From a virus: 32,791 bases of DNA. This document shows, in pieces, positions 1-26,271 of the stretch. The stretch covers positions 1 to 32,791 of IMG/VR virus record IMGVR_UViG_3300025828_000087, one strand, 5' to 3'. The stretch's first letter is position 1, and each line of letters opens with the position of its first letter. Under the pieces are notes generated by a model that worked only from the letters and a program-made list of their open reading frames with translations, was not told the DNA's origin and did no database searches. Both the position numbers and the translations under genes were made by a program.

Positions 1-397
1 CATCAGTATTTACAAATAAAGCAGATACATCTAAATCATAAACACCTGCATAACTGACTGTGATACGATTACTTGCTAATGACATACCTACTGTATATTC
101 AGATTCTGATAAATCTAATATTTGTGGCGTGTTAACAGTTGCAAAAGTTATATCTGCTCTTTCTTCAAATGTTCCATAAGGATAAGAATTTGTAGCTGCC
201 GCACTTAAAGTCAATGGAACTAATATAATCTGTGAATCAGGACTGATACGCTCATTGTAGATTGTGGTTGTGATTGCTCCACCTGTTGCCAGTGTGAATG
301 TACCAGTATTATTTGTCTTACCATTTAAGATAAGATTAGTTACTTCTGCAATTTCACGAGTATCTGCATACTGTGGTTGTAGTCTACGAAACTGCAT
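1..397 (-). CDS. Partial virion structural protein (tail region), 3' end outside window
   Basis: The frame opens with ATG at 397 and stays open for 132 codons to the window edge, so the C-terminus is missing. The start overlaps the stop of the upstream tail gene as TAATG, the junction type used throughout this operon. The protein starts MQFRRLQPQYADTREIAEV and continues as a Thr/Ala/Ser-rich beta-type sequence with no enzymatic motif. Position after the nozzle-like gene suggests a tail or fibre component. I do not recognise a named family. Confidence 0.8.
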   Translation of the reverse strand, partial: MQFRRLQPQYADTREIAEVTNLILNGKTNNTGTFTLATGGAITTTIYNERISPDSQIILVPLTLSAAATNSYPYGTFEERADITFATVNTPQILDLSESEYTVGMSLASNRITVSYAGVYDLDVSALFVNTD

Positions 398-1824
398 TAT
401 CGGTTACCTTGTGGTTTAACATCTACATCAATAGATACTGCATCTGTCCAGTTACCTGTAGGCTGTACCAAGAACCTATGATAGCGACCAGCACTGCGGA
501 CATTGGCACGACCATCTGTAGTAGTGACTACATTAACACCAAATACGCTGTTATCAGATAATTCTTTACGAGAAGCTACCTTAATATTAGCAGAGCCATT
601 ATCTATCTGTGGTCTGACTAATGTCACAACAGAGTTATAACCTAATTCAATATCTGGTGTAATGAGTTGTGAGTCGTATGTAGAGCCTGTAAAGGTGACA
701 ATCTTGTCGTTTTTAAATCCTGCAAATAAGAACTTACCACCCACCCATAATCGGTCATCCAGTGATGCAGGAATAGCCTCTAATGTTCCATAACCTAGAG
801 ATATTTCTAATGACTCTAATGTTTCACCAGTTGTTGCAATACCACCAACCCCTGTAGAAACAGTAGTTGCTCTTGACCATTTGTTTAACTGCCAGTTGTA
901 AATTAAGATACTACGGCTACCGTCCACATTAGCATAGTTCCATACGACTAGCTTTTTAATAGGGTCTACAGCAGCAGAGATGCTATCTAAATCTGTTAAG
1001 TCAGCATTTTTAAAGAAGTATCTATCTACTTTTTCTGTACCAATCCCTGTGACTGTTTGTCCGTCACATTTATAAAAACCGTCAGCAGAGAGGAAGAATG
1101 ATGTTGCACCGTACTGTGCAATACTGTTACCTTCTAAACATCCTAATCCTCTTGATATGGTATCGAACTGAAAGAATAATGGAGAACCAGAATAGGTCAT
1201 ACGCACAATAGAACGCTCTAAAAAGATAAGTCCTATCTCACCACCTGTAATCCCAGTAATGTCACCACCATCAGGAATAATCTGATAATCTGCTTGAGAT
1301 GTAGTGCCACTTGTCCATGTTGTTTCATCGTTAATATCAGACCACTGCACTTTGTTAGTATCTGTACCAGCACCAATGTTAGCAGTGACTACAAAGTCTC
1401 TTACAACTGTCACATATTTAGCTGTTGGAGCAGATGCAGATAAGTCAGCAAATGCTGCTGATGCACCGATTGTCCATGCTTGTAATTTGTCTTGATTGTT
1501 AGCACAAATGACTACTTTACCAAATTGACAGAAGTGCCATGTGTTACCAGAATAACCGCCTGATTTAGATTTGTCATCTAACGATAAGTCTGTGGCATCT
1601 AGTTTAAATATCTTGTCTGTACTGCCTGCAAAGATAACCACTTCATCACCGTATTTAGCACCAAACACAGAGTTAAGGTTAGAGGATGCGGCTTGTGAAA
1701 AATCTACAGCGTTAGCAAATGGTGCATAGCCTACAGAAGTAGGGTACACATTCTTTGCATCTCTTAATGATGTCATAGAAGGTTGGTCAGGTAACCACTC
1801 ATCAAACTGTATTCTTGTTCCCAT
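397..1824 (-). CDS. Beta-rich tail nozzle / DNA stabilisation-like protein
   Basis: A 475-residue protein starting MGTRIQFDEWLPDQPSM. It is almost entirely short beta-type segments rich in Gly, Thr, Asp and aromatic residues, with repeated blade-like stretches (for example IFAGSTDKIFKLD and RLWVGGKFLFAGFKNDK). That pattern is typical of beta-propeller nozzle or packaged-DNA stabilisation proteins (P22 gp10 or T7 gp12-like) in podovirus-like tails. It lies at the tail end of the structural operon, two bases from the ParB-like gene. The family assignment rests on pattern and position, not on a search. A generic tail hub protein is the alternative. Confidence 0.7.
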   Translation of the reverse strand: MGTRIQFDEWLPDQPSMTSLRDAKNVYPTSVGYAPFANAVDFSQAASSNLNSVFGAKYGDEVVIFAGSTDKIFKLDATDLSLDDKSKSGGYSGNTWHFCQFGKVVICANNQDKLQAWTIGASAAFADLSASAPTAKYVTVVRDFVVTANIGAGTDTNKVQWSDINDETTWTSGTTSQADYQIIPDGGDITGITGGEIGLIFLERSIVRMTYSGSPLFFQFDTISRGLGCLEGNSIAQYGATSFFLSADGFYKCDGQTVTGIGTEKVDRYFFKNADLTDLDSISAAVDPIKKLVVWNYANVDGSRSILIYNWQLNKWSRATTVSTGVGGIATTGETLESLEISLGYGTLEAIPASLDDRLWVGGKFLFAGFKNDKIVTFTGSTYDSQLITPDIELGYNSVVTLVRPQIDNGSANIKVASRKELSDNSVFGVNVVTTTDGRANVRSAGRYHRFLVQPTGNWTDAVSIDVDVKPQGNR

Positions 1825-1825
1825 T

Positions 1826-2182
1826 CTATTCCTTATGTTCTTGGTAAAATTTACTAATGTCTTGCTCTGTTAATACATAAGCATTGACAGTTTTATTGTT
1901 AATTTGTTTTAATAACCGATGCCGACCATCAATCATTCTGTATGGTTTGTTGTGTGGGTTTTGCATACCCTGTACCACAATGACTGGATAGTTTGTATTA
2001 GCTGTGATGTATCGAGCCTCTGTCTTATCTATACTGTCTAATTCTTTGTGTGATATGTCAGCAATCTGTATCTCTTGTGACGGTATCTGTTTAAACTGTA
2101 TATATTGTATGACTTGTAATACATTGATAAACATATCAGGTGTGTTATCTAACCTCCACTCACCTGTCATGATGTGTTTCAT
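1826..2182 (-). CDS. ParB-like N-terminal domain protein
   Basis: A 118-residue protein with the ParB/sulfiredoxin-fold signature DGRHRL at residues 85-90, preceded by a hydrophobic strand (YPVIVVQG). There is no helix-turn-helix or C-terminal dimer domain, so it is not a partition ParB. Small stand-alone ParB-fold proteins in phages are associated with NTP binding, nuclease or kinase-like activities, but no activity can be assigned here. Its ATG overlaps the stop of the oxygenase-like gene by four bases (ATGA), implying co-translation. Confidence 0.65.
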   Translation of the reverse strand: MKHIMTGEWRLDNTPDMFINVLQVIQYIQFKQIPSQEIQIADISHKELDSIDKTEARYITANTNYPVIVVQGMQNPHNKPYRMIDGRHRLLKQINNKTVNAYVLTEQDISKFYQEHKE

Positions 2183-2685
2183 TCTAATCTAAATCCAAAG
2201 CTAAACCGATTAGCATAACTGCCTACACAATGCCATAACTGCTCTGGCAATGCTGGTATATCAAACTCTCTGACCGTAATACCTATGTTGTCATAGTCTG
2301 TAATAATGTCATTTCCTTGTTTGTATCTAAAGAATGACTGACCGTCTGTGTATGTAATGTAAACACGCTTACAAGGTTTGTTAGAGTTTGTATGCCAACC
2401 CATGTAACCTGTTTTAGGATAGTAGTAATGACCGCTATCTATAATATTGTAATCAGGATAAAGTTCTTGCATGATGTGCATAAACTTACCTGTATTACGA
2501 CTACCAAAGTCTATGTAATAACTATCATGACTCACTGGTATATCTTTTGAAAAGTCATATTCTAAATGGCTTTCCCAGTTAGGTACTTCTTTTATTCCTT
2601 TTAATTTACTTCTATAAATAATATCAGGAACAATACTTTCTGCTAATATTAGTATTTTAGAATTTAGATTTGTATTTTTCTGCAT
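2179..2685 (-). CDS. 2-oxoglutarate/Fe(II) oxygenase-like protein
   Basis: A 168-residue protein. The C-terminal half has the double-stranded beta-helix layout: GWHTNSN with His98 and Asn100, then WHCVGSYANRFSFGF with His152 and Arg160. The second His and the Arg fit the Fe and 2-oxoglutarate ligands. The usual HxD is HxN here, so either Asn100 or another acid completes the site, or activity is altered. Similar proteins with HTNSN are, from memory, frequent in aquatic phages; substrates are mostly unknown. The start overlaps the upstream gene by 29 bases, has no clear Shine-Dalgarno, and is uncertain. Confidence 0.65.
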   Translation of the reverse strand: MQKNTNLNSKILILAESIVPDIIYRSKLKGIKEVPNWESHLEYDFSKDIPVSHDSYYIDFGSRNTGKFMHIMQELYPDYNIIDSGHYYYPKTGYMGWHTNSNKPCKRVYITYTDGQSFFRYKQGNDIITDYDNIGITVREFDIPALPEQLWHCVGSYANRFSFGFRLE

Positions 2686-3148
2686 AATCCACTAACAATG
2701 ATTGTGGATAAGTTTTAGCCACATCTAGCCCAGTGTGTGCATTAGAGTAATCTAAACTTTGTGGCATATCTCTTAATGCTTGTTTATCTGCTTCTATTTC
2801 TGCAACTAATGCAGAGTTGTTAGATGCTAATGCTCTGGTTTGATAGCCGTCTAATACTTTAAATGCGTTTGCTCTAATTTGTTTGTAGAGGTTGAGGAAA
2901 TAAGATTTGAGTAAATCTAAATCAAACACAATGTCTGTAGGATTGTCTTGGTTATCAAATACGCACTTGTCAATATGAATGTGTTTAGCACTTTCTTCTG
3001 CTTTCATATTTTCGTTATGAGGTTTAACTAATGTCCTAGAACCATGAGGAATTACACCTTCTGCTTTTAACACATCTACTGTTTTATCAGTAATAGTAAA
3101 AGCAACTTTGTTTGTTCCAACTGGTGTATTAAAGTAAACTATATTCAT
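2657..3148 (-). CDS. Tail-fibre-associated protein with chaperone-like C-terminus
   Basis: A 163-residue protein. The second half contains LDGYQTRAL followed by a helix and KQALRDMPQSLD. This resembles the C-terminal helical motif of small tail-fibre assembly proteins, and the 81-residue protein at 4714-4959 carries a matching LD...KQQLRD pattern. The first half (MNIVYFNTPVGTNKVAFTI) looks beta-stranded. An AAGGATAA ribosome site lies upstream of the ATG at 3148. It probably assists or caps the fibre encoded just upstream. No named family is claimed. Confidence 0.6.
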   Translation of the reverse strand: MNIVYFNTPVGTNKVAFTITDKTVDVLKAEGVIPHGSRTLVKPHNENMKAEESAKHIHIDKCVFDNQDNPTDIVFDLDLLKSYFLNLYKQIRANAFKVLDGYQTRALASNNSALVAEIEADKQALRDMPQSLDYSNAHTGLDVAKTYPQSLLVDYAEKYKSKF

Positions 3149-3157
3149 TCTTTATCC

Positions 3158-3994
3158 TTATGTGTAAATAACAGCAGTAATGTATGTAGGGTCAACCGCA
3201 GTAATACCAAACATTTGTGTAGCGTTACCGTCACCATCAGCAGCAGAGAACACCACATAATCGTTGTATGTTCTAATGGCTCTAATGTTAAATGTGCTAT
3301 CAGCACGACTGTATACCATTGTATTATAGAGGTCTAATGTGAAATCACTCCCTGTTACCCCTGTACCTTGTGATAATACAGCTTGGTCTACATTCCCTAA
3401 TACAACACAGTAATTAGCATCGCCATCTCTAATACCTGTATCCAATGTAATAGTGTAGTCACCTGTCCCATTCTTAACTAATGTTAAGTTAGAACTAGCA
3501 ATAACAGAACCTGTCGAGCCATTAAATGCAATGTATCCAGCAGCAGAAGCTGTATTACCTACTAGCTCTTTTACAAAAGCTGTCGTAGCAATCTTGGTAC
3601 TGTCATCTGTAGATGCTTGTGTAGTTGTGGTAGGAGAACCTGCTAAATTAACACTGTCTGCAATTTGGTCTGTGCCTACTGCATCATCGGCAATTTTAGC
3701 ACTGGTAATAGCATCTGCATCTATATCAGCAGTAGCGACTGTAGATTTTACAGCTAATGCACCTAAACCTAAATTTGTTCTAGCATCGGCTGCTGTTCCT
3801 GCATTTGTTCCACCAGAAGCAATCGGTAGTTTATCACCACTGATTCCAGACTGCCAGTCTTTAAGATGAGCCATCACCTCACGAATAGCATTGTTAATGC
3901 CTGATGGAGGACAACCTTCTGCAATATTAACACCATCTACATCGGTGTTATTACTTGCGGTTGAATCGTATTCTGATATTTTGGTTTTTGCCAT
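3158..3994 (-). CDS. Tail fibre protein
   Basis: A 278-residue protein starting MAKTKISEYDSTASNNTDV. Residues near 55-75 carry ASGGTNAGTAADARTNLG, the widespread phage fibre shaft motif, followed by Ala/Asp-rich triplet-like repeats (ADIDADAITSAKIADDAV). The C-terminal 130 residues are beta-rich and end in YITAVIYT, plausible as a receptor-contacting tip. The sequence AAGGATAAAACATG gives a strong ribosome site. It is one of several fibre-type genes in the 3-10.5 kb array. Confidence 0.75.
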   Translation of the reverse strand: MAKTKISEYDSTASNNTDVDGVNIAEGCPPSGINNAIREVMAHLKDWQSGISGDKLPIASGGTNAGTAADARTNLGLGALAVKSTVATADIDADAITSAKIADDAVGTDQIADSVNLAGSPTTTTQASTDDSTKIATTAFVKELVGNTASAAGYIAFNGSTGSVIASSNLTLVKNGTGDYTITLDTGIRDGDANYCVVLGNVDQAVLSQGTGVTGSDFTLDLYNTMVYSRADSTFNIRAIRTYNDYVVFSAADGDGNATQMFGITAVDPTYITAVIYT

Positions 3995-3997
3995 GTT

Positions 3998-4714
3998 TTA
4001 TCCTTGTCGTAACCATGTGTTTGATTCAGGTGTATCTTCCACCCATACTTCGTTTCCAGATGATACAGTAGACCATGTTTCTGCTCCTACTGCACTATCT
4101 GACCATTCTTCGCCTAACACATAACCTAAAGCAGTTATTGTGCCATTAGCATTTATAATTGCATCACCACTAAATGTTGCATTACCTAAACAGTTGACTA
4201 GAGCTTGTGCATCTATCACTGTATTTACATCTTTAATTAAACCACCTAGTGTATAGACTTCTGCACTAGCACTCATACTTGCACTAGACCTAGCCTCACT
4301 AAATCCGTTAGCTGTAACGCTGGCATTGGAGAATATTACACCACTAGCTACTGCGAGAGAGAATCCTTCTGCATCAAATAATGCGTAACCTACAATATCA
4401 CCAGATGTATTTCTAATTCTTAAGTATGATACAGATGCACTTGCCTCACCTGTAATTGCACCAGATACTGTTGCTATTTTTGTTGCATCTATAGTGACTG
4501 CACCAGATGAATTGATACCAGCATCAGCACTAAATATAGCTACACCATTAGTTGTTATAGTCGCAGTAGATGATATATCACCACTAAATGTGCGTAATCT
4601 TACAGCAGTAGATACAAGAGTGGCATCAGCAGTAATATTAGCTTCACCTAATAAAACTGCACCTGCACCTAGTGTACTAAAAGGTGATTGAGAAAATGCA
4701 GATATGCCAAACAT
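3998..4714 (-). CDS. Ala/Ser/Thr-rich beta-repeat tail protein
   Basis: A 238-residue protein of low-complexity beta segments with spaced Gly, Ala and Ser, for example repeated units of the form xITADATLVS and GAVTIDATKIA. It ends GEEWSDSAVGAETWSTV followed by a Trp-rich tail. The repeats suggest an elongated beta-helical or beta-sandwich fibre segment. The ATG overlaps the stop of the 81-residue gene as TAATG. Its function as a tail adhesin is inferred from composition and context. Confidence 0.6.
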   Translation of the reverse strand: MFGISAFSQSPFSTLGAGAVLLGEANITADATLVSTAVRLRTFSGDISSTATITTNGVAIFSADAGINSSGAVTIDATKIATVSGAITGEASASVSYLRIRNTSGDIVGYALFDAEGFSLAVASGVIFSNASVTANGFSEARSSASMSASAEVYTLGGLIKDVNTVIDAQALVNCLGNATFSGDAIINANGTITALGYVLGEEWSDSAVGAETWSTVSSGNEVWVEDTPESNTWLRQG

Positions 4715-4959
4715 TATACACCTACATCAGGTAATGTTGCTGATTTTAATTCCTCTACTGTTGTCATACTGTCTACTTGATTTGTTGCATCTCTTAATTG
4801 CTGTTTTTTAGTAACAATCGCAGATGTGTCAGCACCTGTTTCTTGTGCTTTTATAAACTCAATATCTAATGCTTGTAGTTTAGGTGCTCTTTCAGCACGA
4901 AGTTTGTCTTTAGTAATATCTTTAGCTTTAGCTATGTCTATTTTTATTCCCATGTCCAT
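4714..4959 (-). CDS. Small tail-fibre assembly (chaperone-like) protein
   Basis: An 81-residue, highly helical protein: MDMGIKIDIAKAKDITKDK, RAERAPKLQALDIEFIKA, then KKQQLRDATNQVDSM. This arrangement is a recurring small protein beside phage tail-fibre genes. The LD...KQQLRD segment matches the C-terminal part of the protein at 2657-3148, suggesting paralogous assembly factors. Its start lies inside the end of the preceding gene, a 16-base overlap. Confidence 0.6.
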   Translation of the reverse strand: MDMGIKIDIAKAKDITKDKLRAERAPKLQALDIEFIKAQETGADTSAIVTKKQQLRDATNQVDSMTTVEELKSATLPDVGV

Positions 4960-5129
4960 GCGTTCCTAAAAGTTCTGTCAGAAGGTATTTCTGAATTGTC
5001 TACGATATGATACTCTTTACCAGATGGTACATCTTTAGCTGCTATTTCTTCTACTGTTAATCCACAATCTGCTGGAACAATTATAGATACTGAACCATCA
5101 TCGTTTTTATATACTATTCTTTTATCCAT
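4944..5129 (-). CDS. Small tail-associated protein, RNAWTW C-terminus
   Basis: A 61-residue protein: beta-type N-terminus (RIVYKNDDGSVSIIVPA), then LTVEEIAAKDVPSGKEY, ending SDRTFRNAWTWE. Together with the overlapping 81-residue gene it forms a pair I recognise from tail-fibre loci of many phages and prophages, where it is annotated only as tail protein. AAGGAAAAATTATG gives the ribosome site. Confidence 0.6.
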   Translation of the reverse strand: MDKRIVYKNDDGSVSIIVPADCGLTVEEIAAKDVPSGKEYHIVDNSEIPSDRTFRNAWTWE

Positions 5130-5138
5130 AATTTTTCC

Positions 5139-5645
5139 TTATCTAAATATTGCAATTTCTGCATTTGCTGGGTCACTAGCAGAACCACTAGATGATTCTC
5201 TTACAAATCTCCTTGATGTTGTGGTTGGTGCTGTAAGACTTGGGTCTACTGGACCAAAAGAATAATTTAATGCTGCTCCAGAGAGTGTTGAACTGCCACA
5301 TACAGAAGCATAATTAGTGTCAGGCATAGCAGTTGCAAAATTGACTGTGTAGTCACCTGTACCATTATCAGTAATAGAACTAACATTACCACTTGCTCTT
5401 ATTGCTACTGTTCCTGTTCCGTTAAAGTTTACCCATGCACGACAAGCATATACAGGAGCAGAACCGCTAGCATTAAATAAACTTAAAGCATCACTATCGC
5501 TATAGGAAGATACACCAGTTACAGTTCCACTAAATGTCATATTGTTAGGAACAGTTAAATTACCACTTGCATCTATAGATAATATAGCACTTCCGTCTTG
5601 CTCTATCGTTGAACCAGATGCTGTGGGTTTTATACTAATGGTCAT
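5139..5645 (-). CDS. Tail fibre / receptor-binding protein
   Basis: A 168-residue protein starting MTISIKPTASGSTIEQDGS. A longer open frame exists upstream to 5702, but ATG 5645 overlaps the stop of the 59-residue gene as TAATG and the upstream codons are used by that gene, so 5645 is chosen. The N-terminal 40 residues (SIDASGNLTVPNNMTFSGTV) form a fibre attachment motif found on many tail fibres. The rest is a compact beta domain. One of the interchangeable-looking fibre genes. Confidence 0.7.
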   Translation of the reverse strand: MTISIKPTASGSTIEQDGSAILSIDASGNLTVPNNMTFSGTVTGVSSYSDSDALSLFNASGSAPVYACRAWVNFNGTGTVAIRASGNVSSITDNGTGDYTVNFATAMPDTNYASVCGSSTLSGAALNYSFGPVDPSLTAPTTTSRRFVRESSSGSASDPANAEIAIFR

Positions 5646-5824
5646 TACTGAACTCCGTCTAGTTGTTCCTGTGTAGGTTGAGCTAATGTTGGGTGATTCC
5701 ATTCTCTGATGTAGTCACCTTTACCATCGCTATCATTCTGAAGCATGATTGTACCAGTAGTTGGTGCAAAGTCTGCATCAGTTAAGTCTGGGTAAAGTGT
5801 TGTTATTTTTTCGTAAAGTGTCAT
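5645..5824 (-). CDS. Small XkdW-like tail assembly protein (59 aa)
   Basis: A 59-codon gene running from ATG 5824 to TAA 5645. The protein begins MTLYEKITTLYPDLTDADF, has an acidic middle (LQNDSDGKGDYI) and ends PTQEQLDGVQ. The layout resembles small XkdW-type proteins next to tail-fibre genes. AAGGATAAAACATG is a strong ribosome site, and its stop overlaps the next ATG. Likely a fibre assembly partner of the gene directly downstream. Confidence 0.7.
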   Translation of the reverse strand: MTLYEKITTLYPDLTDADFAPTTGTIMLQNDSDGKGDYIREWNHPTLAQPTQEQLDGVQ

Positions 5825-5833
5825 GTTTTATCC

Positions 5834-6448
5834 TTATGTTTGATGTAATAATACAACTGAAAAGCTACATCTGTTTGGTTCGATTGCTTTTGCAGCTCCA
5901 CTGCTATGATATGTATAAAACTCTAAAGTATCATTTTCTGAAAGATGCAATAATTTAATGTGTACATTATTGTGTTTTTCAGAAGTGCTATTAATTATAT
6001 TACCATGTTGTTGCCAAGCATCTTTATGTCCTTTAGAAACACTACTACCTCCATTTAAATATATACCAGAATGTAATACATTAGGACCATCTCTCAATTC
6101 TATTGTATGATTTACAAGATATAATCCATTATATGGAACAGTATATGTATATGTTGATGTATTATAGTTACTTGCAGAACCAGTATAAAATGCTACAGTA
6201 TCATACTGAACTTTAGTACCTGTAACATTACTAATACTTTGAGCAGAAGATGCATGAACAACAATAGATACAGGAGCTTGTGGCTTATATCCATTAGCAT
6301 TGAACTGACCTACCTCTGTAGGATTATCTGCATTACCGACACCAATCCTTAATGTTCCATCAGGTGTTGCTGGTTGATAGATAGTAAAGTTATTGCTAGA
6401 GGTAGCATCTGTTCCGACTTGTAGTTTCTTTGATTTTACTGTACTCAT
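5834..6448 (-). CDS. Tail protein with C1q-like jelly-roll domain
   Basis: A 204-residue protein. An N-terminal connector (about residues 1-55, MSTVKSKKLQVGTDATSSN) is followed by a C1q/TNF-like domain at about 60-203. Visible marks are VQYDTVAFYTGS, YTYTVPYNGLYLVN, LHLSENDTLEFYT and the closing strand CSFSVVLLHQT. C1q-like domains trimerise and bind ligands, so this is a good candidate receptor-binding tip. The ATG overlaps the upstream stop as ATGA. Confidence 0.75.
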   Translation of the reverse strand: MSTVKSKKLQVGTDATSSNNFTIYQPATPDGTLRIGVGNADNPTEVGQFNANGYKPQAPVSIVVHASSAQSISNVTGTKVQYDTVAFYTGSASNYNTSTYTYTVPYNGLYLVNHTIELRDGPNVLHSGIYLNGGSSVSKGHKDAWQQHGNIINSTSEKHNNVHIKLLHLSENDTLEFYTYHSSGAAKAIEPNRCSFSVVLLHQT

Positions 6449-6750
6449 TCTGAACCTTTAGGATATTTGTTTTTTACTGCTTGTATTTTATCTGCCATTT
6501 CTTGTGGGAATACACCTGCATGAAATAGTGCATCTAATTGGTCACCAATTGGTGGGTATTCAGATACTCTATTTCTTTGGTATTGCGTAGAAGCATATTC
6601 TGCATTTAATTCTGCAACTTTAGCAGTCACTTCTTCTAATGTAGGTTTAGTTTGTTCAGTATCTTTCCAAATTAGATTATTATAATCTTCACCTTCCATT
6701 TCCCATGTAGCGTTTGGTCTTAATGCTACTAATGCTTTTGAAATATTCAT
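6445..6750 (-). CDS. Tail-fibre-associated protein with YPPIGDQLDALFH motif
   Basis: A 101-residue protein. The N-terminus is MNISKALVALRPNATWEM, then a helix (EEVTAKVAELNAEYASTQ), then the strongly conserved RVSEYPPIGDQLDALFHAG, ending in a Lys-rich tail. The YPPIGDQLDAL motif is familiar from small tail proteins of marine and enteric phages. It is coupled by overlap to the genes on both sides and is likely a fibre assembly protein. Confidence 0.65.
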   Translation of the reverse strand: MNISKALVALRPNATWEMEGEDYNNLIWKDTEQTKPTLEEVTAKVAELNAEYASTQYQRNRVSEYPPIGDQLDALFHAGVFPQEMADKIQAVKNKYPKGSE

Positions 6751-7307
6751 TATCCAGCTACCTCCATAAGAATCATATTACATATGTTTGTAGAATGAGG
6801 GCTGTCTGTACTATCTGTGTAATTTGCTGTTCTATTTAAATACAATACAGTTCCTTCACCAGCAAAATATGTTTTATAAGTTGTTGCACTTGTTGTTGCA
6901 GGGCTGTCCATGTATTGAAATGATATTGAGTTTACATGATTTCCATCTTCACCTTGACCATTACTAGAAAATGTACCTTGTTTTCTGTTTCCAACTGAAT
7001 TACCGACACCGATATCTGTAGAATTTCTAACTAATTTATGAACCCAGCCATTTGCGTTAATATCAATTTTACCAAAATTAACCATAATTAATATTTTACT
7101 AGATGTAGAAGATGGTGTAATAGTTGTTGCTAATTCAGTTATTTCTGTCCAAGTATGAGAGGAATAGCTATATGTTTTATTTGCAGTATAAACAGTTTGC
7201 ACTACTTGTAATATTTTTCCACCTACACCAGAACCTAAATCAGAAGATGTAATAGTTCCATCAACAATTTTATCTACACCTGTATCACCATATACTTTAG
7301 TTACCAT
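6750..7307 (-). CDS. Tail fibre / receptor-binding protein
   Basis: A 185-residue protein starting MVTKVYGDTGVDKIVDGTI. ATG 7307 overlaps the stop of the 54-residue gene (TAATG), so it is preferred over the in-frame start at 7322. The first 30 residues (VDGTITSSDLGSGVGGKIL) are a common fibre connector. The remainder is a beta sandwich with alternating Thr/Ser/aromatic strands and a hydrophobic closing strand ICNMILMEVAG. Likely one of several adhesins. Confidence 0.7.
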   Translation of the reverse strand: MVTKVYGDTGVDKIVDGTITSSDLGSGVGGKILQVVQTVYTANKTYSYSSHTWTEITELATTITPSSTSSKILIMVNFGKIDINANGWVHKLVRNSTDIGVGNSVGNRKQGTFSSNGQGEDGNHVNSISFQYMDSPATTSATTYKTYFAGEGTVLYLNRTANYTDSTDSPHSTNICNMILMEVAG

Positions 7308-7471
7308 TATACAACACTCCATGTAGAACCATCACCGATTGTAATAACAATACCATCTGCTACAGTTACAGGACCAGCAGTCATAGCATTGCGATTGTCT
7401 GCGAGTGTGTAGTCAGTATCTAGTGTAATACTGTTTTCTACAAAACCTATGCCATTTATAGTAATGCTCAT
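7307..7471 (-). CDS. Small tail-fibre tip-like protein (54 aa)
   Basis: A 54-codon gene. It starts MSITINGIGFVENSITLD and ends TAGPVTVADG followed by VITIGDGSTWSVV. The same ending type, GPVTINGGVSVTVPSGSNWK, closes the 162-residue tail protein at 10036-10524, so the short protein is effectively a stand-alone copy of that beta repeat. It overlaps both neighbours (ATGA upstream, TAATG downstream). Confidence 0.7.
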   Translation of the reverse strand: MSITINGIGFVENSITLDTDYTLADNRNAMTAGPVTVADGIVITIGDGSTWSVV

Positions 7472-7623
7472 TCTGCCTCCTCTGGTGTGTTACCTTCTGC
7501 TACCCATTCTAGGTATTCTTGATAGTCTGTGTTAGCTTCGTCTTTAGGTATAAAAGTATTGTCAGTAGTTCTTAATATTACATTTGCTTCTATACTATTT
7601 TCATCGTTAATTTTTTTATACAT
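7468..7623 (-). CDS. Small acidic tail-region protein (51 aa)
   Basis: A 51-codon gene from ATG 7623 to TGA 7468. It starts MYKKINDENSIEANVILR and ends in an acidic helix (EYLEWVAEGNTPEEAE). It starts one base after the stop of the large fibre gene, and its own stop overlaps the next start. Size, charge and position fit a fibre assembly helper. No family is claimed. Confidence 0.6.
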   Translation of the reverse strand: MYKKINDENSIEANVILRTTDNTFIPKDEANTDYQEYLEWVAEGNTPEEAE

Positions 7624-8658
7624 TTATAACTCCGCACTAAATGCTGCTGATTTATCTGTTCTTAAAACTGCAAACTGAACTGTTGTTCCTCCAGTCCAAC
7701 CATTTATCGCTATTGATGCTCCTGTTTGGGATAGTTCAGTAAAATATATAGCAGAACCACTACTGGTTTTGTTACCATTATGTCTAATAGTTAATGCTGT
7801 ATTTAATAAAGTAACTGATGGTGTTGCTCTCATTTCACAATAATATCTAACACCCCACCATATTTGAGTAGAACTATCCCAATGACCAATACACCCATTA
7901 CCAAATGGTATTTGATAATACCTCTGACATCTTGCTAACTCCATATCATAAGGTCTGTGTTCAAATGGTGTAGCTATATCTCCTTTTTCAAATTGTATTT
8001 GAGAGAAATCTATTGTGCCTGTATTTGTATCTGTAATTTGCACTCCTACCCATAAACTATGGTTGTTATCTGTACCTAGTGTTTTACCTGATATTGATGG
8101 AACATTAACAGTAAATGTAAACTTTTGCCAATCAGTTGTTAAAGCTACTGTGCCTAAAGATGTAACAACAGTAGCTGAAGGAGAGCCACCTGTGCCAAAA
8201 TATTGCACTATTCTTGCATTAATAGTTGTAGAACCTGATGGACGTCTAGCATAAAAAGATAATGTAGCTGTTTGTCCAGCTAAAGTTCTTACATCTTCAA
8301 TTCTTTGGTGAACTTCATAATTTTGACTATTAGAGTTAATTGTCCATCTTCCATAATAACTTGGTTCATTAGGAACTTCAGTTTGTCCTAATGTAAATGA
8401 CTGTCTTGCAAAACTACCACTAGCTGCACCAACCTTAAATCTATCGGCAGTATAAGCTGAACCACTTAATGATATTGATGTTCCTCTTTGCCATATATCA
8501 AAATTACCATTGATGATAAGATTGCGTACACCTAAAGCATTTTGTGTTGCTAGTGTGCTAGAAGTGGCAGGTAGGTTTAGTGTTGTTGTTCCTGCAACTG
8601 CTGGTGCTTGTATGGTAACTTCACCAGATGTATCGCCTTTTAGTTTTATACTTGCCAT
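7624..8658 (-). CDS. Tail fibre with carbohydrate-binding-like domain
   Basis: A 344-residue protein starting MASIKLKGDTSGEVTIQAP, the common fibre connector that ends LNLPATSSTLAT. ATG 8658 overlaps the upstream stop (TAATG) and is preferred over an in-frame start 18 bases upstream. From about residue 45 it has NLIINGNFDIWQRGTS and TADRF, the start of a phage beta-sandwich module related to carbohydrate-binding domains. The module continues to about residue 240 (FEKGDIATPFEHRP). A separate C-terminal beta tip follows. Probably a major receptor-binding protein. Confidence 0.75.
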   Translation of the reverse strand: MASIKLKGDTSGEVTIQAPAVAGTTTLNLPATSSTLATQNALGVRNLIINGNFDIWQRGTSISLSGSAYTADRFKVGAASGSFARQSFTLGQTEVPNEPSYYGRWTINSNSQNYEVHQRIEDVRTLAGQTATLSFYARRPSGSTTINARIVQYFGTGGSPSATVVTSLGTVALTTDWQKFTFTVNVPSISGKTLGTDNNHSLWVGVQITDTNTGTIDFSQIQFEKGDIATPFEHRPYDMELARCQRYYQIPFGNGCIGHWDSSTQIWWGVRYYCEMRATPSVTLLNTALTIRHNGNKTSSGSAIYFTELSQTGASIAINGWTGGTTVQFAVLRTDKSAAFSAEL

Positions 8659-9002
8659 TAAACTACCTCTGTCCAATTCGTAATAGATTCATTCCAGATA
8701 TACTGACCTTCTTCAGGCATGGGAACTGGTGCTTCCCATAAACAAGTGGTTTCATTTAGTGTCCATGATGCAAATGGTTGTGGTGGAATAAACGCATCTT
8801 TTTCTCTATCGTAAGTATAACCAATACCTGCAAAGTTTTTTCTTAATGGTGTTCCACCTAATGTATGTTCACCACCATGTGTATTATAAGATGTCTGTAT
8901 CCATTCACCTGCTGAATCATCTACAAATGTATCAAAAAATTCTTGTTCAGCAACTATGACTTTAGTTACGATACCATCTGTTACTTTTGCGTAATGTGCC
9001 AT
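8658..9002 (-). CDS. Conserved small tail protein (MAHYAKV family)
   Basis: A 114-residue protein starting MAHYAKVTDGIVTKVIVAEQ, with WIQTSYNTHGGEHT and NFAGIGYTYDREKDAFIPPQ. This is a family I recognise as widespread in marine phages near fibre genes. It is rich in Trp and Pro and ends WNESITNWTEVV. Its exact role is unknown; proximity to fibres suggests a structural or assembly role. The AAGGATATATATG ribosome site supports the start. Confidence 0.75.
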   Translation of the reverse strand: MAHYAKVTDGIVTKVIVAEQEFFDTFVDDSAGEWIQTSYNTHGGEHTLGGTPLRKNFAGIGYTYDREKDAFIPPQPFASWTLNETTCLWEAPVPMPEEGQYIWNESITNWTEVV

Positions 9003-9010
9003 ATATATCC

Positions 9011-10036
9011 TTATGCCGTAAATGTTCCTGATGATGTAAATGTGTGATATGTGTATCCACCCGATGATGTAACTGTACCACCAGTTCCTCTTTGTGAACC
9101 TTGATATCTTATTATAACTATTCCTGACCCGCCATTAGCACCAATTGTACCTCCAACACCAGCTTGACCACCACCTCCACCGCCTCCACCACCTGTGTTT
9201 GCTGTTCCAGCAGTAACTGTTCCCATATTTGTACCTCCAGCACCTCCGCCACCAGAGCCACCTGCTCCTCCAGCTCCACCAGCGTTACCGCCACCACCAC
9301 CGCCTCCTCCTGCGTAAGTTGAACCATTATCCCAAGTTTTTCCTGAACCTCCTGCACCACCACTATTTCCAGAAGCATTAGCACCAACAGCATTAGCTCC
9401 TCCTCCGCCACCAGAACCTTGATACCCTCCAGCAGCAGAAGTTCCTCCAGCCGAACCTTGTCCAGATGTTCCACTACCACCAGCATATGATCCACTTCTA
9501 CCTGAACCACCACCGCCAGAACCACCTGACTTTCCTATTACAGCATCTAAACCACCAGTACCACCACCAACGGCAGTTAAACTATTAAATGTAGTATCAG
9601 AACCACTTGGAAATGTATTAGGAGCATTAGTCCCTGTGCCACCAGCTCCTACAGTAATACTATAACTATTTCCAATTAATGCAGTAGATGAACCAGCAAT
9701 ATAACCTCCAGCTCCACCGCCTCCACCATGAGAACCTGCTCCACCACCACCTCCAGCAACTATAAGATAATTAAATGCGTAATTATTAGGGTTGTCTCTA
9801 AATACTGACCAACCATTTGTTGTATATATTTCTGGTTCGTTTAGTGTGGTGTTAAAACCAATAAGACCTTGTGTTGGAGTAGATGGTCTTGTAGCTGTAG
9901 TCCATTGTGGTAACTCTAAACCATCAGCACCAAACTTAATCATTTTAGTGCCGTTTTGTTGAAATTCTATTTCACCACTCGTATCAGGAGTAATAACCAA
10001 TCCGTTTGTTGTATCTGCATTTATTGTAACTGCCAT
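9011..10036 (-). CDS. Glycine-rich tail adhesin
   Basis: A 341-residue protein starting MAVTINADTTNGLVITPDT; ATG 10036 overlaps the upstream stop (TAATG). Residues 1-90 are a connector (SGEIEFQQNGTKMIKFGADG). From about residue 93 it is dominated by Gly runs with interspersed Ser and Ala, then closes with GGSGIVIIRYQGSQR and a YTYHTFTSSGTF strand. Such domains form stacked polyglycine type II helices in phage adhesins (for example the S16 gp38 type), presenting variable loops for receptor contact. Confidence 0.75.
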   Translation of the reverse strand: MAVTINADTTNGLVITPDTSGEIEFQQNGTKMIKFGADGLELPQWTTATRPSTPTQGLIGFNTTLNEPEIYTTNGWSVFRDNPNNYAFNYLIVAGGGGGAGSHGGGGGAGGYIAGSSTALIGNSYSITVGAGGTGTNAPNTFPSGSDTTFNSLTAVGGGTGGLDAVIGKSGGSGGGGSGRSGSYAGGSGTSGQGSAGGTSAAGGYQGSGGGGGANAVGANASGNSGGAGGSGKTWDNGSTYAGGGGGGGGNAGGAGGAGGSGGGGAGGTNMGTVTAGTANTGGGGGGGGGQAGVGGTIGANGGSGIVIIRYQGSQRGTGGTVTSSGGYTYHTFTSSGTFTA

Positions 10037-10524
10037 TATACGACCTTCCAATTAGAACCTGATGGAACTGTAACACTTACTCCACCATTTATTGTGACTG
10101 GACCAACTGATAAAGCATGATAGCTGTTAGGCACAGTAAAGTTCGCACTTACTGTTGTAGAGTTTACAAAGATTCCGTTACTCGCACCCATTTGTTCTGC
10201 ATATATTGTATTAGTATCATCTTTATGTCCTGATTTTTCAGCAGGATATGTAACAAATACATTACTTGTGCCTGATAGTGTAATCGCACTACCACTGTTG
10301 CTAGACTCTAGTATGGTATCACGAGATAAAGTTGTGCCTGATGCTGTGTAAGTACCTAGACCAACTTCCCAATCATTACCAGAAGTTATGGCATAGTAGG
10401 TTGTATTACCATCACCTATTACAGAGAATGTTTGGAAACCTGTGACTGCACCAGCAAGCGTGACTGTACCTGTGCCTGTGGTCGTAGTAGTTTCCTGTAC
10501 TCTATCCTTAACGACTAATGCCAT
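10036..10524 (-). CDS. Conserved tail protein, fibre-proximal
   Basis: A 162-residue protein starting MALVVKDRVQETTTTTGTG, with TVTLAGAVTGFQTFSVIGDG and TTYYAI. The sequence type is widely conserved at the head of tail-fibre loci in podovirus-like and siphovirus-like phages. The last 30 residues (GPVTINGGVSVTVPSGSNWK) duplicate the end of the 54-residue protein at 7307-7471. AAGGATAAATAATG supports the start. It may connect the adhesin array to the tail. Confidence 0.75.
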   Translation of the reverse strand: MALVVKDRVQETTTTTGTGTVTLAGAVTGFQTFSVIGDGNTTYYAITSGNDWEVGLGTYTASGTTLSRDTILESSNSGSAITLSGTSNVFVTYPAEKSGHKDDTNTIYAEQMGASNGIFVNSTTVSANFTVPNSYHALSVGPVTINGGVSVTVPSGSNWKVV

Positions 10525-10533
10525 TATTTATCC

Positions 10534-10926
10534 TTACGCTAATGTAACTGATAAGTTGCCAGTTGTAATCTTGAAGATGTCACCAGAGTCGATTGTTTTA
10601 GCTGTGTCTAAACCTGTATGGAATAATAAGTTTCCAGCAGTAGAAGCATCATATAAACCTACATGAGTAACTTCACCCCAAGATGCTGTTGCTGTTGGAA
10701 AAGTGACATCAGCAGAGTTTGTAGAAACACCATTGGATGGAGCACCAAATGTTACTGCTGTTCTAGCATATGATGTTCCTGATGTTGATACCTCTGTGCC
10801 TGCATCTGCATCTGTTGGGTCGTTTGTAAATAAACCTACATACACAGTCGTAGGAGATGTGTAAGATGTGTTGCGGAGAACAGCATTGATAATTGCGTTC
10901 TCTAAATAATTACTAAATTCAGCCAT
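10534..10926 (-). CDS. Gp80-like tail protein
   Basis: A 130-residue protein: MAEFSNYLENAIINAVLRN, SPTTVYVGLFTNDPTDA, YARTAVTFGAP, then WGEVTHVGLYDASTAGNLLFH and a closing beta strand. This is a well-conserved family in many phages (the Gp80/tail fibre-associated type, from memory). Position between the adaptor and fibre genes fits a tail structural role. There is no catalytic motif. Confidence 0.75.
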   Translation of the reverse strand: MAEFSNYLENAIINAVLRNTSYTSPTTVYVGLFTNDPTDADAGTEVSTSGTSYARTAVTFGAPSNGVSTNSADVTFPTATASWGEVTHVGLYDASTAGNLLFHTGLDTAKTIDSGDIFKITTGNLSVTLA

Positions 10927-10932
10927 TGTTGT

Positions 10933-11553
10933 TTACCTCGTTGATAATGTTATTGACATAGGAGAAGATGGATATTCGCTATCATCATCACTTGCTCTTA
11001 ATGATGCTAGACCTCTATCATATAAAGATGCCCAAGTTGCTAATCGTTCATCGTTCATAAGATAAGGTTCAGCTTCTGCTAATGCACCGTATAAAAGCAA
11101 GTCTGGGCAGTTAGCTAGAAATAAGTTAGATGGATTACCATCAGATAAGAAATCAGGTTTGTAGTAATACACCATTCTTAATGTATATGCTGTATCAGGT
11201 TTAGGTGCAAATTGAAACTCACTACCTAGTAATGTGTACATGGTAGGTACACCTTTTTCTGTTACTCTAGCGTTTCTAAAAAAGTTAGATGTGTTTTGGA
11301 ACTGTAATACACGAACAGGTGTTGTATCTAAATGTAAGTCTTTCATTGCTAAAAAGTCTGATGGTAGAGATACTGTTGAGTCATCAGCCGTTGTTGTTGC
11401 AGTTGCTACTTTTAGCATTTGTCTAATGCGTAAATCTCTGCGTAGTCTTTGCTCTGCTAGATTAATAAAGTCAGGTATCTGTGTTGTCAGGTCACTACGA
11501 GCAAGATAATCTGCTATCGTGCTTTTTAATGTTGTGTATGAAGTAAATGCCAT
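10933..11553 (-). CDS. Head-tail adaptor (SU10 adaptor-like)
   Basis: A 206-residue protein: MAFTSYTTLKSTIADYLAR, then IPDFINLAEQRLRRDLRIRQ, VSLPSDFLAMKDLHLD, YYYKPDFLSDG and an alpha-helical end (LLLYGALAEAEPYL). This helix-bundle pattern with FINLAEQRLRRDL is typical of phage adaptor proteins that dock under the portal ring. It lies downstream of the capsid gene, as expected for a connector. The start overlaps the 105-residue gene stop (TAATG). Confidence 0.75.
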   Translation of the reverse strand: MAFTSYTTLKSTIADYLARSDLTTQIPDFINLAEQRLRRDLRIRQMLKVATATTTADDSTVSLPSDFLAMKDLHLDTTPVRVLQFQNTSNFFRNARVTEKGVPTMYTLLGSEFQFAPKPDTAYTLRMVYYYKPDFLSDGNPSNLFLANCPDLLLYGALAEAEPYLMNDERLATWASLYDRGLASLRASDDDSEYPSSPMSITLSTR

Positions 11554-11870
11554 TATACTTTACCTTGTCGTGTTCTAAAGAAACGGTTGTCTGGGTCATT
11601 TAACCAAACACGAAATGCTTTCTGGTCAATCACATGAAAGCCTCTCATAATTCCTTTTTGGTTAAGTGTGTCTATTACGGTCAATGGAATAGAAGCTATC
11701 TTATTGTCAAAGACATCATTACCCCAACGACCATTTGTTTGGTTATATTCTTGTTTGTTCTGTTCAATAATTGCGGATACATCTTGTGCAGTCTCAATCA
11801 CTAATCCACCGTCATCGGTGTCATGAGCTACTTTGTTTCTAATATTATCTTTTTCTAATATCTTCGCCAT
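11553..11870 (-). CDS. Conserved virion-region protein, possible head completion factor
   Basis: A 105-residue protein: MAKILEKDNIRNKVAHDTDD, GGLVIETAQDVSAIIEQNK, GRWGNDVFDNKIASIPLTV and FRVWLNDPDNRFFRTRQGKV. The WLNDPDNRFFRTR end is typical of a small protein conserved downstream of capsid genes in many podovirus-like phages. I infer a head or neck role; no function can be read from motifs. Confidence 0.65.
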   Translation of the reverse strand: MAKILEKDNIRNKVAHDTDDGGLVIETAQDVSAIIEQNKQEYNQTNGRWGNDVFDNKIASIPLTVIDTLNQKGIMRGFHVIDQKAFRVWLNDPDNRFFRTRQGKV

Positions 11871-25006: not shown

Positions 25007-25156
25007 ATGAGTAAAATTAAAGAGCAGTATGAATATCTACAATGGCAAATACAAGCCATGCAGAATGATTTACAAGAACTAGGTCAGCGTATGGATGACA
25101 GACAGCAGATGATGACCGATGAGCAACAACAACAGGAGAGTAATGATGGCAGATAA
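25007..25156 (+). CDS. Gln/Met-rich coiled-coil mini-protein (49 aa)
   Basis: A 49-codon gene starting after GGAGAGTAAAT: MSKIKEQYEYLQWQIQAMQN, then DLQELGQRMDDRQQMM and a poly-Gln end. A single coiled coil is likely. It overlaps the annealing protein by 11 bases. Confidence 0.65.
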   Translation: MSKIKEQYEYLQWQIQAMQNDLQELGQRMDDRQQMMTDEQQQQESNDGR

Positions 25157-25676
25157 AAGTAAGTTTCAAGAATTAAGAGTATTAGATGTTTCTAAATACA
25201 TAGAAAAGAAAGGTCAGTTTAGTTATTTGGCTTGGGCACACGCTGTAGACATATTGCTACAACATGACCCTCTGGCAACATGGGAATACCATGAGCCACA
25301 AATCTTTAATGACAGTATGATGGTCACTTGCACAGTCCATGCGTTTGGTAAAAGTATGACCATGCAGTTACCTGTGATGAACTATAAAAATCAAGCCATC
25401 AAGAATCCTGATGCGATGCAAGTTAATACAGCTATGCAAAGATGTTTGGCAAAAGCAATAGCTCTACATGGAATAGGGTTATATATCTTTCAGGGTGAAG
25501 ATTTAGCAGATTTAGACCCATTAGATTTAATTAAGAATGTATATGAAACTCAAGGCATTGATGGGGCTAGAGCCGTCTACAATAAGATGGATAATGAAGC
25601 TAGAAAGAAATGTCAGCCATTTTTGGAGGAGATAAGAAATAACAATAAGGAGAGTCAAGATGGAACAACGCACTGA
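25146..25676 (+). CDS. Single-strand annealing protein (DUF1071 family)
   Basis: A 176-residue protein. FSYLAWAHAVDILLQHDP, then VMNYKNQAIKNPDAMQVNT and RCLAKAIALHGIGLYIFQGE match DUF1071 proteins, which are phage recombinases of the Sak/Rad52-like group. They anneal complementary ssDNA during recombination-dependent replication. ATG 25146 is chosen for its seven-base spacing from GGAG; ATG 25143 is adjacent. It is paired with the YqaJ exonuclease, a standard two-component recombination system. Confidence 0.8.
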   Translation: MADKSKFQELRVLDVSKYIEKKGQFSYLAWAHAVDILLQHDPLATWEYHEPQIFNDSMMVTCTVHAFGKSMTMQLPVMNYKNQAIKNPDAMQVNTAMQRCLAKAIALHGIGLYIFQGEDLADLDPLDLIKNVYETQGIDGARAVYNKMDNEARKKCQPFLEEIRNNNKESQDGTTH

Positions 25677-26271
25677 AGAATGGCATCAGGCTAGGTTAGG
25701 TAAGGTCACAGCATCTAATTTATCCAATGTAACAGCATCAACAAGGTCAGGCGAATCTGCCTATCGTAGAAACTATAGATTAAGATTAATAACAGAACGA
25801 TTAACAGGTCAGCCAACAGAATTTATAATAAATCAAGCTATGCAACATGGTATTGATACAGAAGATGAGGCAAGAGACTTTTATGTATTTAAATACAATG
25901 ATGTAGAAGAAGTGGGCTTTATAGACCACCCTACGATAGACATGGCTGGTGCTAGTCCAGATGGATTAGTTGGTGATGATGGCTTAATTGAAATAAAATG
26001 CAGACAGCCACATAACCATACAGAAACATTAATCTCTAATCAAATACCAAGCAATTACAAGTTGCAGATGTTTTGGCAAATGGCTTGTACTGGTAGAAGG
26101 TGGTGTGATTATGTATCGTATTGTCCGTCATTCCCTGAAGAACTAAAAATGGTAGTTATTAGATTGGAATGGAATGATGAGCAAATCAAATTACTTGAAG
26201 AAGAAGTAATAAAGTTCTTAACGGAGGTTGAGGACACCATTAAATTTATTAAGGAGAACAATAATGGCTAA
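25660..26271 (+). CDS. YqaJ-type lambda exonuclease
   Basis: A 203-residue protein: RTEEWHQARLGKVTASN, GIDTEDEARDFY, GASPDGLVGDDGLIEIKCR. Asp101, Glu111 and Lys113 make the PD-(D/E)XK core, and Glu70 is also conserved. It resects dsDNA 5' ends to give ssDNA for the annealing protein upstream, whose end it overlaps by 17 bases. The cassette GGAGAGTCAAG precedes the ATG. Confidence 0.85.
   Translation: MEQRTEEWHQARLGKVTASNLSNVTASTRSGESAYRRNYRLRLITERLTGQPTEFIINQAMQHGIDTEDEARDFYVFKYNDVEEVGFIDHPTIDMAGASPDGLVGDDGLIEIKCRQPHNHTETLISNQIPSNYKLQMFWQMACTGRRWCDYVSYCPSFPEELKMVVIRLEWNDEQIKLLEEEVIKFLTEVEDTIKFIKENNNG

What the first reader, a model, noticed from the sequence alone, without database searches (positions are those of the whole stretch)
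3158..10524. Array of fibre/adhesin genes interleaved with tiny assembly genes
At least seven fibre-type proteins with different tips (C1q-like, polyglycine, carbohydrate-binding-like, beta-repeat) alternate with 51-114 residue helpers. Two helpers share an LD...KQ.LRD motif (2657-3148, 4714-4959). The end of the 162-residue protein is repeated as a free 54-residue gene. This looks like a modular host-range locus built by duplication and exchange.
Basis: partly seen in the sequence, partly recalled or inferred. Interest (0 to 1): 0.58.

Follow-up and report, generated by a model that had tools for sequence, protein, structure and literature searches.

The report
Phage fibre rack with matched chaperones
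A small marine-type phage carries a row of interchangeable tail-fibre tips, each apparently supplied with its own matching folding helper, and related phages swap tip and helper together while keeping the attachment ends in a nearly fixed order.

Summary
The array is real. On the minus strand, between an adaptor/gp80-like pair and the tail nozzle, lie a 162-aa base protein, seven further fibre-type proteins, seven small helpers and a free 54-aa copy of the base protein's end. In 141 related arrays the fibres keep short slot-specific N-termini in one order (35 of 1174 ordered slot pairs deviate, all involving slot D), while C-terminal tips are exchanged. The tip family predicts the helper family: 132 of 134 de-duplicated pairs; on the 113 with a known slot, tip 111, slot 67. 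The rule holds in helper-fetched loci and in 14 of 15 named isolates. Tips with a built-in S74 chaperone usually lack a helper. Best reading: helpers are tip-specific fibre chaperones, and tip plus helper is the exchanged cassette. Fibre and chaperone travelling together is known; new are the ordered multi-slot rack, several unrelated helper families tied to tip families, and a repeated beta end-domain that usually precedes a fibre. Host range was not tested. Verdict: real, new variant of a known kind.

The parts
10933..11553 (-). tail adaptor (tail tube A-like), upstream border
   Evidence: 73% identical to Venkman gp60 'tail tube A'; 'adaptor' inferred
10534..10926 (-). GP4 fiber I gp80-like tail protein
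   Evidence: PF23140 E 1.6e-49; PDB 8jou E 3.7e-16
10036..10524 (-). slot A: 162-aa base protein; ends in the beta end-domain
   Evidence: 61-98% identical in 10 aligned relatives; end domain E 1e-10 to the 54-aa gene
9011..10036 (-). slot B fibre, glycine-rich tip (341 aa)
   Evidence: PF21722 E 1.9e-20; start
8658..9002 (-). helper C114, cognate of glycine-rich tips
   Evidence: phrog_7759 unknown function; upstream tip gly in 26 of 30 and 31 of 50 fetched loci
7624..8658 (-). slot D fibre, EL tip, CBM_4_9-like below cut-off (344 aa)
   Evidence: phrog_4492 tail fiber E 5.4e-76
7468..7623 (-). helper E51, cognate of EL tips
   Evidence: phrog_20370 unknown; EL tip followed by E51-family gene 69 of 70 in arrays
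7307..7471 (-). slot F: free 54-aa copy of the beta end-domain
   Evidence: present in 13 of 13 complete arrays with slots I and K, 0 of 30 without
6750..7307 (-). slot G fibre, MEVAG tip (185 aa)
   Evidence: phrog_6942 tail fiber E 2e-18
6445..6750 (-). helper H101, cognate of MEVAG tips; small alpha/beta N-domain plus helical C-domain
   Evidence: AF2 pLDDT 92.7; best fold hit XkdW 2hg7 (weak)
5834..6448 (-). slot I fibre, C1q-like tip (204 aa)
5645..5824 (-). helper J59, XkdW family
   Evidence: PF09636 E 2.1e-8, 34.2 against 24.6 bits
5139..5645 (-). slot K fibre, AIFR tip (168 aa)
   Evidence: phrog_11355 tail fiber E 3.2e-19
4944..5129 (-). helper L61, cognate of AIFR tips (first of a pair)
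   Evidence: follows AIFR tips in 23 of 37 (6 next N238, 3 next fibre, 5 contig end)
4714..4959 (-). helper M81 (79 aa from the second ATG), 16-nt overlap with L61 in another frame
   Evidence: phrog_20196 E 1.1e-20; Phage_tail_APC E 0.021 below cut-off
3998..4714 (-). slot N: 238-aa beta-repeat protein present in most relatives
   Evidence: alignment A1
3158..3994 (-). slot O fibre, conserved N-terminus, variable tip (278 aa)
2657..3148 (-). helper P163 for the O tip (outside the stated interval)
   Evidence: phrog_20196 E 1.5e-5; 7 of 7 near-identical relatives
397..1824 (-). tail nozzle (stabilization protein), downstream border
   Evidence: phrog_3287 E 1.3e-65; PDB nozzle 8zkk E 8e-13
25660..26271 (+). 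YqaJ-type recombinase exonuclease; possible engine of exchange
   Evidence: PF09588 E 2.9e-24

Best explanation
The locus is an ordered rack of tail-fibre genes, presumably trimeric. Each fibre has a short N-terminus that belongs to a slot (presumed to dock it to the tail or to a neighbour) and a C-terminal tip presumed to bind the host surface. The small gene after a tip encodes a folding/trimerisation chaperone specific for that tip family; it works in trans, so one helper can serve several fibres with the same tip family. Tip and helper are exchanged together between phages by recombination at conserved N-terminal and helper DNA, while slot order stays nearly fixed. Shown: slot order, tip-helper pairing, generality, DNA breakpoints, helpers shared on a contig, usual absence of a helper where the tip carries a built-in S74 chaperone. 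Inferred: chaperone activity, docking, receptor binding, recombination as the agent.
For: Tip predicts helper 132 of 134 (MI 2.30 of 2.37 bits; 2000 shuffles mean 0.25, max 0.42); on the 113 with known slot: tip 111, slot 67. Each main tip family sits behind several slots. In loci fetched by helper: E51 preceded by EL tip 36 of 36 (anchors present) and 40 of 44 (anchors absent); H101 by MEVAG 32 of 34 and 43 of 45; C114 by gly 26 of 30 and 31 of 50. In those 239 loci any EL tip is followed by E51 in 120 of 122. Named isolates 14 of 15; P-SSP7 and Lederberg have three MEVAG fibres then one H101. 36 of 40 tips without adjacent cognate helper have it elsewhere on the contig, 19.5 expected. S74-type tips: 22 of 27 without helper; 9 of 9 scanned carry Peptidase_S74. 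Breakpoints. H101 model: small alpha/beta plus helical domain, comparable with Pam3 gp25, a demonstrated fibre chaperone (PMC9608196, passages). XkdW-like gp25 of Sam46 sits beside the receptor-binding fibre and its mutations change plaques (PMC8190038, passages).
Against: No experiment shows that any of these helpers folds a fibre. Most helpers match no named chaperone family; M81 to Phage_tail_APC is below cut-off. The H101-XkdW fold match is weak (E 0.49; Z 4.7). Co-divergence of tip and helper (run before an anchor bug was mended, not rerun) has Mantel r 0.38, 0.62, 0.49 with 0 of 1000 shuffles for EL, MEVAG, AIFR, but 0.11 with 106 of 1000 for C1q, and rank correlations are weak. C114 without anchors is only 31 of 50 by HMM. 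Five S74 tips are followed by a small gene, family c7. The window's own I-J and O-P pairs rest on four and seven near-identical copies, so they do not enter the de-duplicated count. Two exceptions: an MEVAG tip followed by E51 (L101) and an O-slot tip followed by H101 (L010).
Confidence: 0.8

Rival explanations
1. Helpers are structural parts of the mature fibre (caps or connectors that stay on the virion, as the Tfa of Mu does), not transient chaperones.
For: Pairing statistics cannot tell the two apart; Mu and Ur-lambda chaperones are reported in virions (stated in PMC9608196, passages).
Against: Helpers missing next to most S74 tips and one helper shared by several fibres fit folding in trans better; Pam3 gp25 was not detected in virions.
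Confidence: 0.25
2. Tip-helper linkage is only linkage by inheritance: neighbouring genes travel together, without functional coupling.
For: They are adjacent; tip-helper rank correlations are weak.
Against: The N-terminus lies in the same gene as the tip yet is largely uncoupled from the helper (67 of 113 against 111 of 113); the rule holds in isolates such as P-SSP7, Synechococcus phage RN05-S and Xanthomonas phage FoX4.
Confidence: 0.1
3. A switching system within one genome: invertible fibre segment (Mu G type) or diversity-generating retroelement.
For: Many alternative tips at one locus across relatives.
Against: Among repeats of 25 nt or more in 1800-11600, only low-complexity glycine repeats, short direct repeats up to 41 nt at 68-73% and one palindrome were found; three of the window's unassigned larger ORFs were scanned and none is a reverse transcriptase or invertase; L002-L004 have collinear arrays, every compared protein 100% identical except a 99% adaptor in L002.
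Confidence: 0.04

Closest known systems
Fibre plus Tfa chaperone modules (Mu S/U, P2 H/G, T4 37/38; gene pairs recalled, Tfa as described in PMC9608196 passages)
   Same: Small gene after the fibre, specific to the distal tip; fibre and helper exchanged together; fixed N-terminal attachment end.
   Different: One fibre, one Tfa there (recalled); here up to seven slots and several mutually unrelated helper families, none hitting a Tfa (Caudo_TAP) Pfam model at E 0.1.
Pam3 gp24-gp25 and Alteromonas A5/V22 fibre-chaperone modules (PMC9608196, PMC10579305; passages)
   Same: TNF-like and glycine-rich tip with a two-domain chaperone (Pam3); fibre-chaperone module shared by unrelated phages (A5, V22, P24).
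   Different: Single fibre; no rack described in the passages read; sequence relation to the helpers here not tested.
Podophage GP4 tail (gp80 fiber I, PF23140)
   Same: gp80-like protein present.
   Different: Title of the GP4 paper (seen in a reference list only) gives three fibre types; here a longer exchangeable set.
Methylophilales phage Venkman (MT375522)
   Same: TerL 79%, nozzle 65%, slots A-B-D-S-N-O.
   Different: Lacks the F-G-I-K block; tips differ; helpers annotated as hypothetical, mesocentin-like or F-box/FNIP-repeat proteins.

Membership tests
XkdW (PF09636) | Pfam gathering score (helper J59) | tested here: met
   34.2 bits against 24.6
XkdW (PF09636) | XkdW fold in helper H101 | tested here: inconclusive
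   2hg7 ranks first, Foldseek E 0.49, prob 0.75; VIA Z 4.7, rmsd 3.2, 53 aligned; profile comparison E 0.0014 for one comparison
Tfa tail fibre assembly chaperones | gene directly downstream of a fibre, specific to its tip | tested here: met
   132 of 134; 14 of 15 isolates
Tfa tail fibre assembly chaperones | sequence match to a Tfa Pfam model (Caudo_TAP, name recalled) | tested here: not met
   no such hit at E 0.1 for the window's helpers; therefore 'works like a Tfa', not filed as one
Tfa tail fibre assembly chaperones | needed for folding or trimerisation of the fibre | not testable with these tools
   needs co-expression
Tfa tail fibre assembly chaperones | beta N-domain plus helical C-domain | tested here: inconclusive
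   H101 model has a small alpha/beta N-domain and four helices, pLDDT 92.7, but no Tfa or gp25 chain appears among the listed fold matches
C1q/TNF-like tips | jelly-roll fold of the tip | tested here: met
   I204 monomer model; trimer not tested
Invertible fibre locus or DGR | inverted or TR/VR repeats plus invertase or reverse transcriptase | tested here: not met
   (repeats of 25 nt or more in 1800-11600; three unassigned larger ORFs scanned; the record may be incomplete)
GP4-type podophage tail | gp80-like fiber I protein and a nozzle | tested here: met

The most novel reading that the evidence does not exclude
The 45-50 aa beta end-domain at the end of the base protein is a docking platform, and the free 54-aa gene is a second, freestanding platform that recruits a whole extra block of fibres (G-I-K). 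The tail would then carry a branched or stacked set of up to seven different adhesins in fixed order, each loaded with any tip for which the phage brings the helper: an open 'tool-holder' used by otherwise unrelated phages, including MEP401 and MEP402, which are listed as Zobellviridae.
Probability: 0.3. Interest if true: 0.75.

Novelty: new variant of a known kind. Interest (0 to 1): 0.55.

Why it matters
It proposes a testable function for several small PHROG families now listed as unknown (7759, 20370, 9114, 20196): tip-specific fibre chaperones whose type can be read off from the C-terminal family of the neighbouring fibre. It would give a simple rule for which helper must accompany a fibre tip when phage adhesins are made for study, and an annotation rule for the adhesins of abundant uncultured aquatic phages, where such proteins are currently named misleadingly.

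Tried and rejected
First pass used the 162-aa protein as an anchor without demanding its N-terminus, so the 54-aa gene was sometimes taken for it and arrays were cut short. Mended; counts quoted are from these, except the co-divergence test, which was not rerun, and the tip and helper HMMs used, whose tip seeds were built from the first-pass clusters.

The slot patterns were written by me after looking at the sequences, so slots are descriptive; fibres whose N-terminus fits no pattern are '?' and are left out of slot counts. Gene calls come from my own script, checked on the window only. The list of 'fibre' genes (130 aa or more) contains some non-fibres (2OG-like genes, endonucleases, Q168). 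Tips were de-duplicated by shared 4-mers over the last 100 residues, and tip families with a single de-duplicated member were dropped before the 132-of-134 count. Loci were fetched by helper, which favours loci that have one. The 15 isolates were picked by hand from the three listings for variety of host; the other listed records were not examined.

The expectation that helper families are homologous to each other was mostly not borne out; only XkdW-H101 is suggestive. M81 and P163 show no pairwise similarity. PDB searches with the A162, H101 and C114 profiles and the single M81 sequence gave nothing useful. The N238 profile gave a weak adhesin-like hit, E 0.0098. Absence from the structural hit lists is not evidence of a new fold.

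Literature: eight searches listed no paper whose title or abstract start describes a multi-slot rack with tip-matched helper families; this covers one open-access library only. Five papers were opened for passages and a sixth.
Full report
What is there. The window is a 32.8-kb virus record with no tRNA gene. Its nearest isolate is Methylophilales phage Venkman (TerL 79%, nozzle 65%), which infects an OM43 strain and looks short-tailed in electron micrographs (PMC8163748, passages). Between the adaptor and gp80-like genes and the nozzle lies a nearly gapless minus-strand chain: A162, B341, C114, D344, E51, F54, G185, H101, I204, J59, K168, L61, M79/81, N238, O278, P163, then Q168 and R118. In Venkman the same region is annotated with tail fibre, S74-like, FhaB-like and tail collar proteins interleaved with small genes.

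Comparison with relatives. A nozzle search gave 80 loci, a search with the N238 family 80, partly the same; with four annotated records and the window these were gene-called. After mending an anchor error, 141 arrays with 1057 genes, among them 516 of fibre length, remained. Three contigs (L002-L004) carry collinear arrays in which every compared protein is 100% identical, apart from a 99% adaptor in L002. L005, with a 98% identical nozzle, has other tips at D, I and K: DNA similarity survives at 8503-8660 (98%), 6287-6452 (94%), 7300-7642 and 5561-5835 (84%), a 69-nt patch at 7927-7995 (90%), and then collinearly at 303-4723 (95.5%). Crossovers thus fall near the end of the slot-specific N-terminus.

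Ordered slots. With N-terminal patterns, slot order is A-B-D-F-G-I-K-N-O, or with D after the F-G-I-K block; S lies after D, and T before N. Of 1174 ordered slot pairs 35 deviate, all between D and F, G, I, K or T. In 43 arrays complete from A to N, F, I and K are all present (13) or all absent (30).

Tip-helper code. Clustering the last 130 residues of fibres and, separately, the small proteins gives: EL tip then E51 family 69 of 70; MEVAG then H101 40 of 48; C1q-like then XkdW 32 of 48; AIFR then L61 23 of 37; two glycine-rich clusters then C114 8 of 13 and 5 of 6. After removing near-identical tips (312 left), 132 of the 134 pairs that have a helper, and whose tip family has at least two such members, show the majority helper of their tip family; shuffling gives mean mutual information 0.25 bits against 2.30 observed. 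On the 113 with a recognised slot, slot predicts 67, tip 111. The five tip profiles do not cross-hit each other's seeds.

Generality. Searching with helper families and then looking upstream: E51 36 of 36 and 40 of 44, H101 32 of 34 and 43 of 45, C114 26 of 30 and 31 of 50, for loci with and without array anchors in the fetched DNA; anchors could lie beyond it, so 'without' does not prove another virus group. Looking the other way in the 239 loci, EL is followed by E51 in 120 of 122, MEVAG by H101 in 108 of 139, C1q by XkdW in 24 of 32, glycine-rich by C114 in 67 of 107, AIFR by L61 or M81 in 22 of 42. Of 15 named isolates chosen from three tblastn listings, 14 have the cognate tip directly upstream by HMM; the exception, Melnitz-3, has a glycine-rich end that was not recognised.

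Why chaperones. Three observations point the same way. Tips that lack a neighbouring cognate helper have one elsewhere on the contig in 36 of 40 cases (19.5 expected); in P-SSP7 and Lederberg three MEVAG fibres are followed by one H101. The tip family with a Peptidase_S74 intramolecular chaperone (9 of 9 scanned, of 27) has no helper in 22 of 27. And two small families resemble known players: J59 is XkdW, and H101 is confidently modelled as a small alpha/beta domain plus four helices whose best, though weak, structural match in the PDB is XkdW. Pam3 gp25, a two-domain chaperone, binds a TNF-like and glycine-rich fibre 3:3 (PMC9608196, passages). Mutations in an XkdW-like protein next to the receptor-binding fibre of Sam46 change plaque type (PMC8190038, passages).

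End-domain. The C-terminal ~45 residues of A162, repeated as F54, also end other base fibres, including P-SSP7 gp17 and MEP401 gp57. In the 239 loci 102 of 103 matches are C-terminal; the next gene carries a recognised tip in 73 of 102 (2 of the 102 lie at a contig end), against 153 of 1365 for genes that are neither tip, helper nor end-domain; in the arrays 59 of 69 against 40 of 348. In the five isolate genes with this end, three are followed by a recognised tip. This suggests a platform on which the next fibre sits; that is inference.

Same rack, other backbone. MEP401 and MEP402, listed as Zobellviridae and infecting Methylophilales, carry B, D and S slots in the same order behind an end-domain gene, and a gp80-like protein at 40-41% identity, although the window's TerL, portal and capsid proteins find no match at E 1e-3 in the fetched MEP regions, which include those genes. 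The rack seems to move between phage families.

Limits. Host range, receptor binding, presence of all fibres on one virion and chaperone activity are untested. Slot patterns and de-duplication are mine. The window's own I-J and O-P pairs occur only in near-identical copies and do not enter the de-duplicated statistics; co-divergence was not seen for the C1q family.

Noticed in passing
window 2179-2685; L049:2093-2587, L047:3772-4266, L073:883-1356: Different small genes between the last fibre and the nozzle look like 2OG-Fe(II) oxygenases by eye (H...H...R pattern); of the three scanned, only L073 has a Pfam hit (2OG-FeII_Oxy_3, E 9e-5, below cut-off). The window gene Q168 has none.
   Followed up: partly
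L059:4079-4660; L398 (MEP301) 7854-8435: Endonuclease genes that begin with the slot D start, as if inserted in the slot D reading frame (GIY-YIG and NUMOD3 hits for L059; the MEP301 gene is annotated putative endonuclease).
   Followed up: partly
L057:5697-6215; L083:3248-3892 and 8613-9077: HNH-annotated or endonuclease VII-type genes sit between fibre genes; they could promote exchange.
   Followed up: no
window 4944-4959: Helpers L61 and M81 overlap by 16 nt in different frames, and are separate genes in the relatives looked at; together they might correspond to the two domains of a Pam3 gp25-like chaperone.
   Followed up: partly
window 1826-2182: 118-aa protein with a ParB-like 'DGRHR' motif (label recalled); matches PHROGs of unknown function only.
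   Followed up: no
window 25119-26271: A gene in the position of Venkman's SAK-like gp24 next to a YqaJ exonuclease: possibly a phage homologous recombination pair that drives tip exchange.
   Followed up: partly
L400 (P-SSP7) 1718-4438; L393 (RN05-S) 181-6030: Cyanophages carry similar fibre/helper rows; in RN05-S the record's annotators call the H101-like gene a tail assembly chaperone and two neighbouring genes endosialidase.
   Followed up: partly
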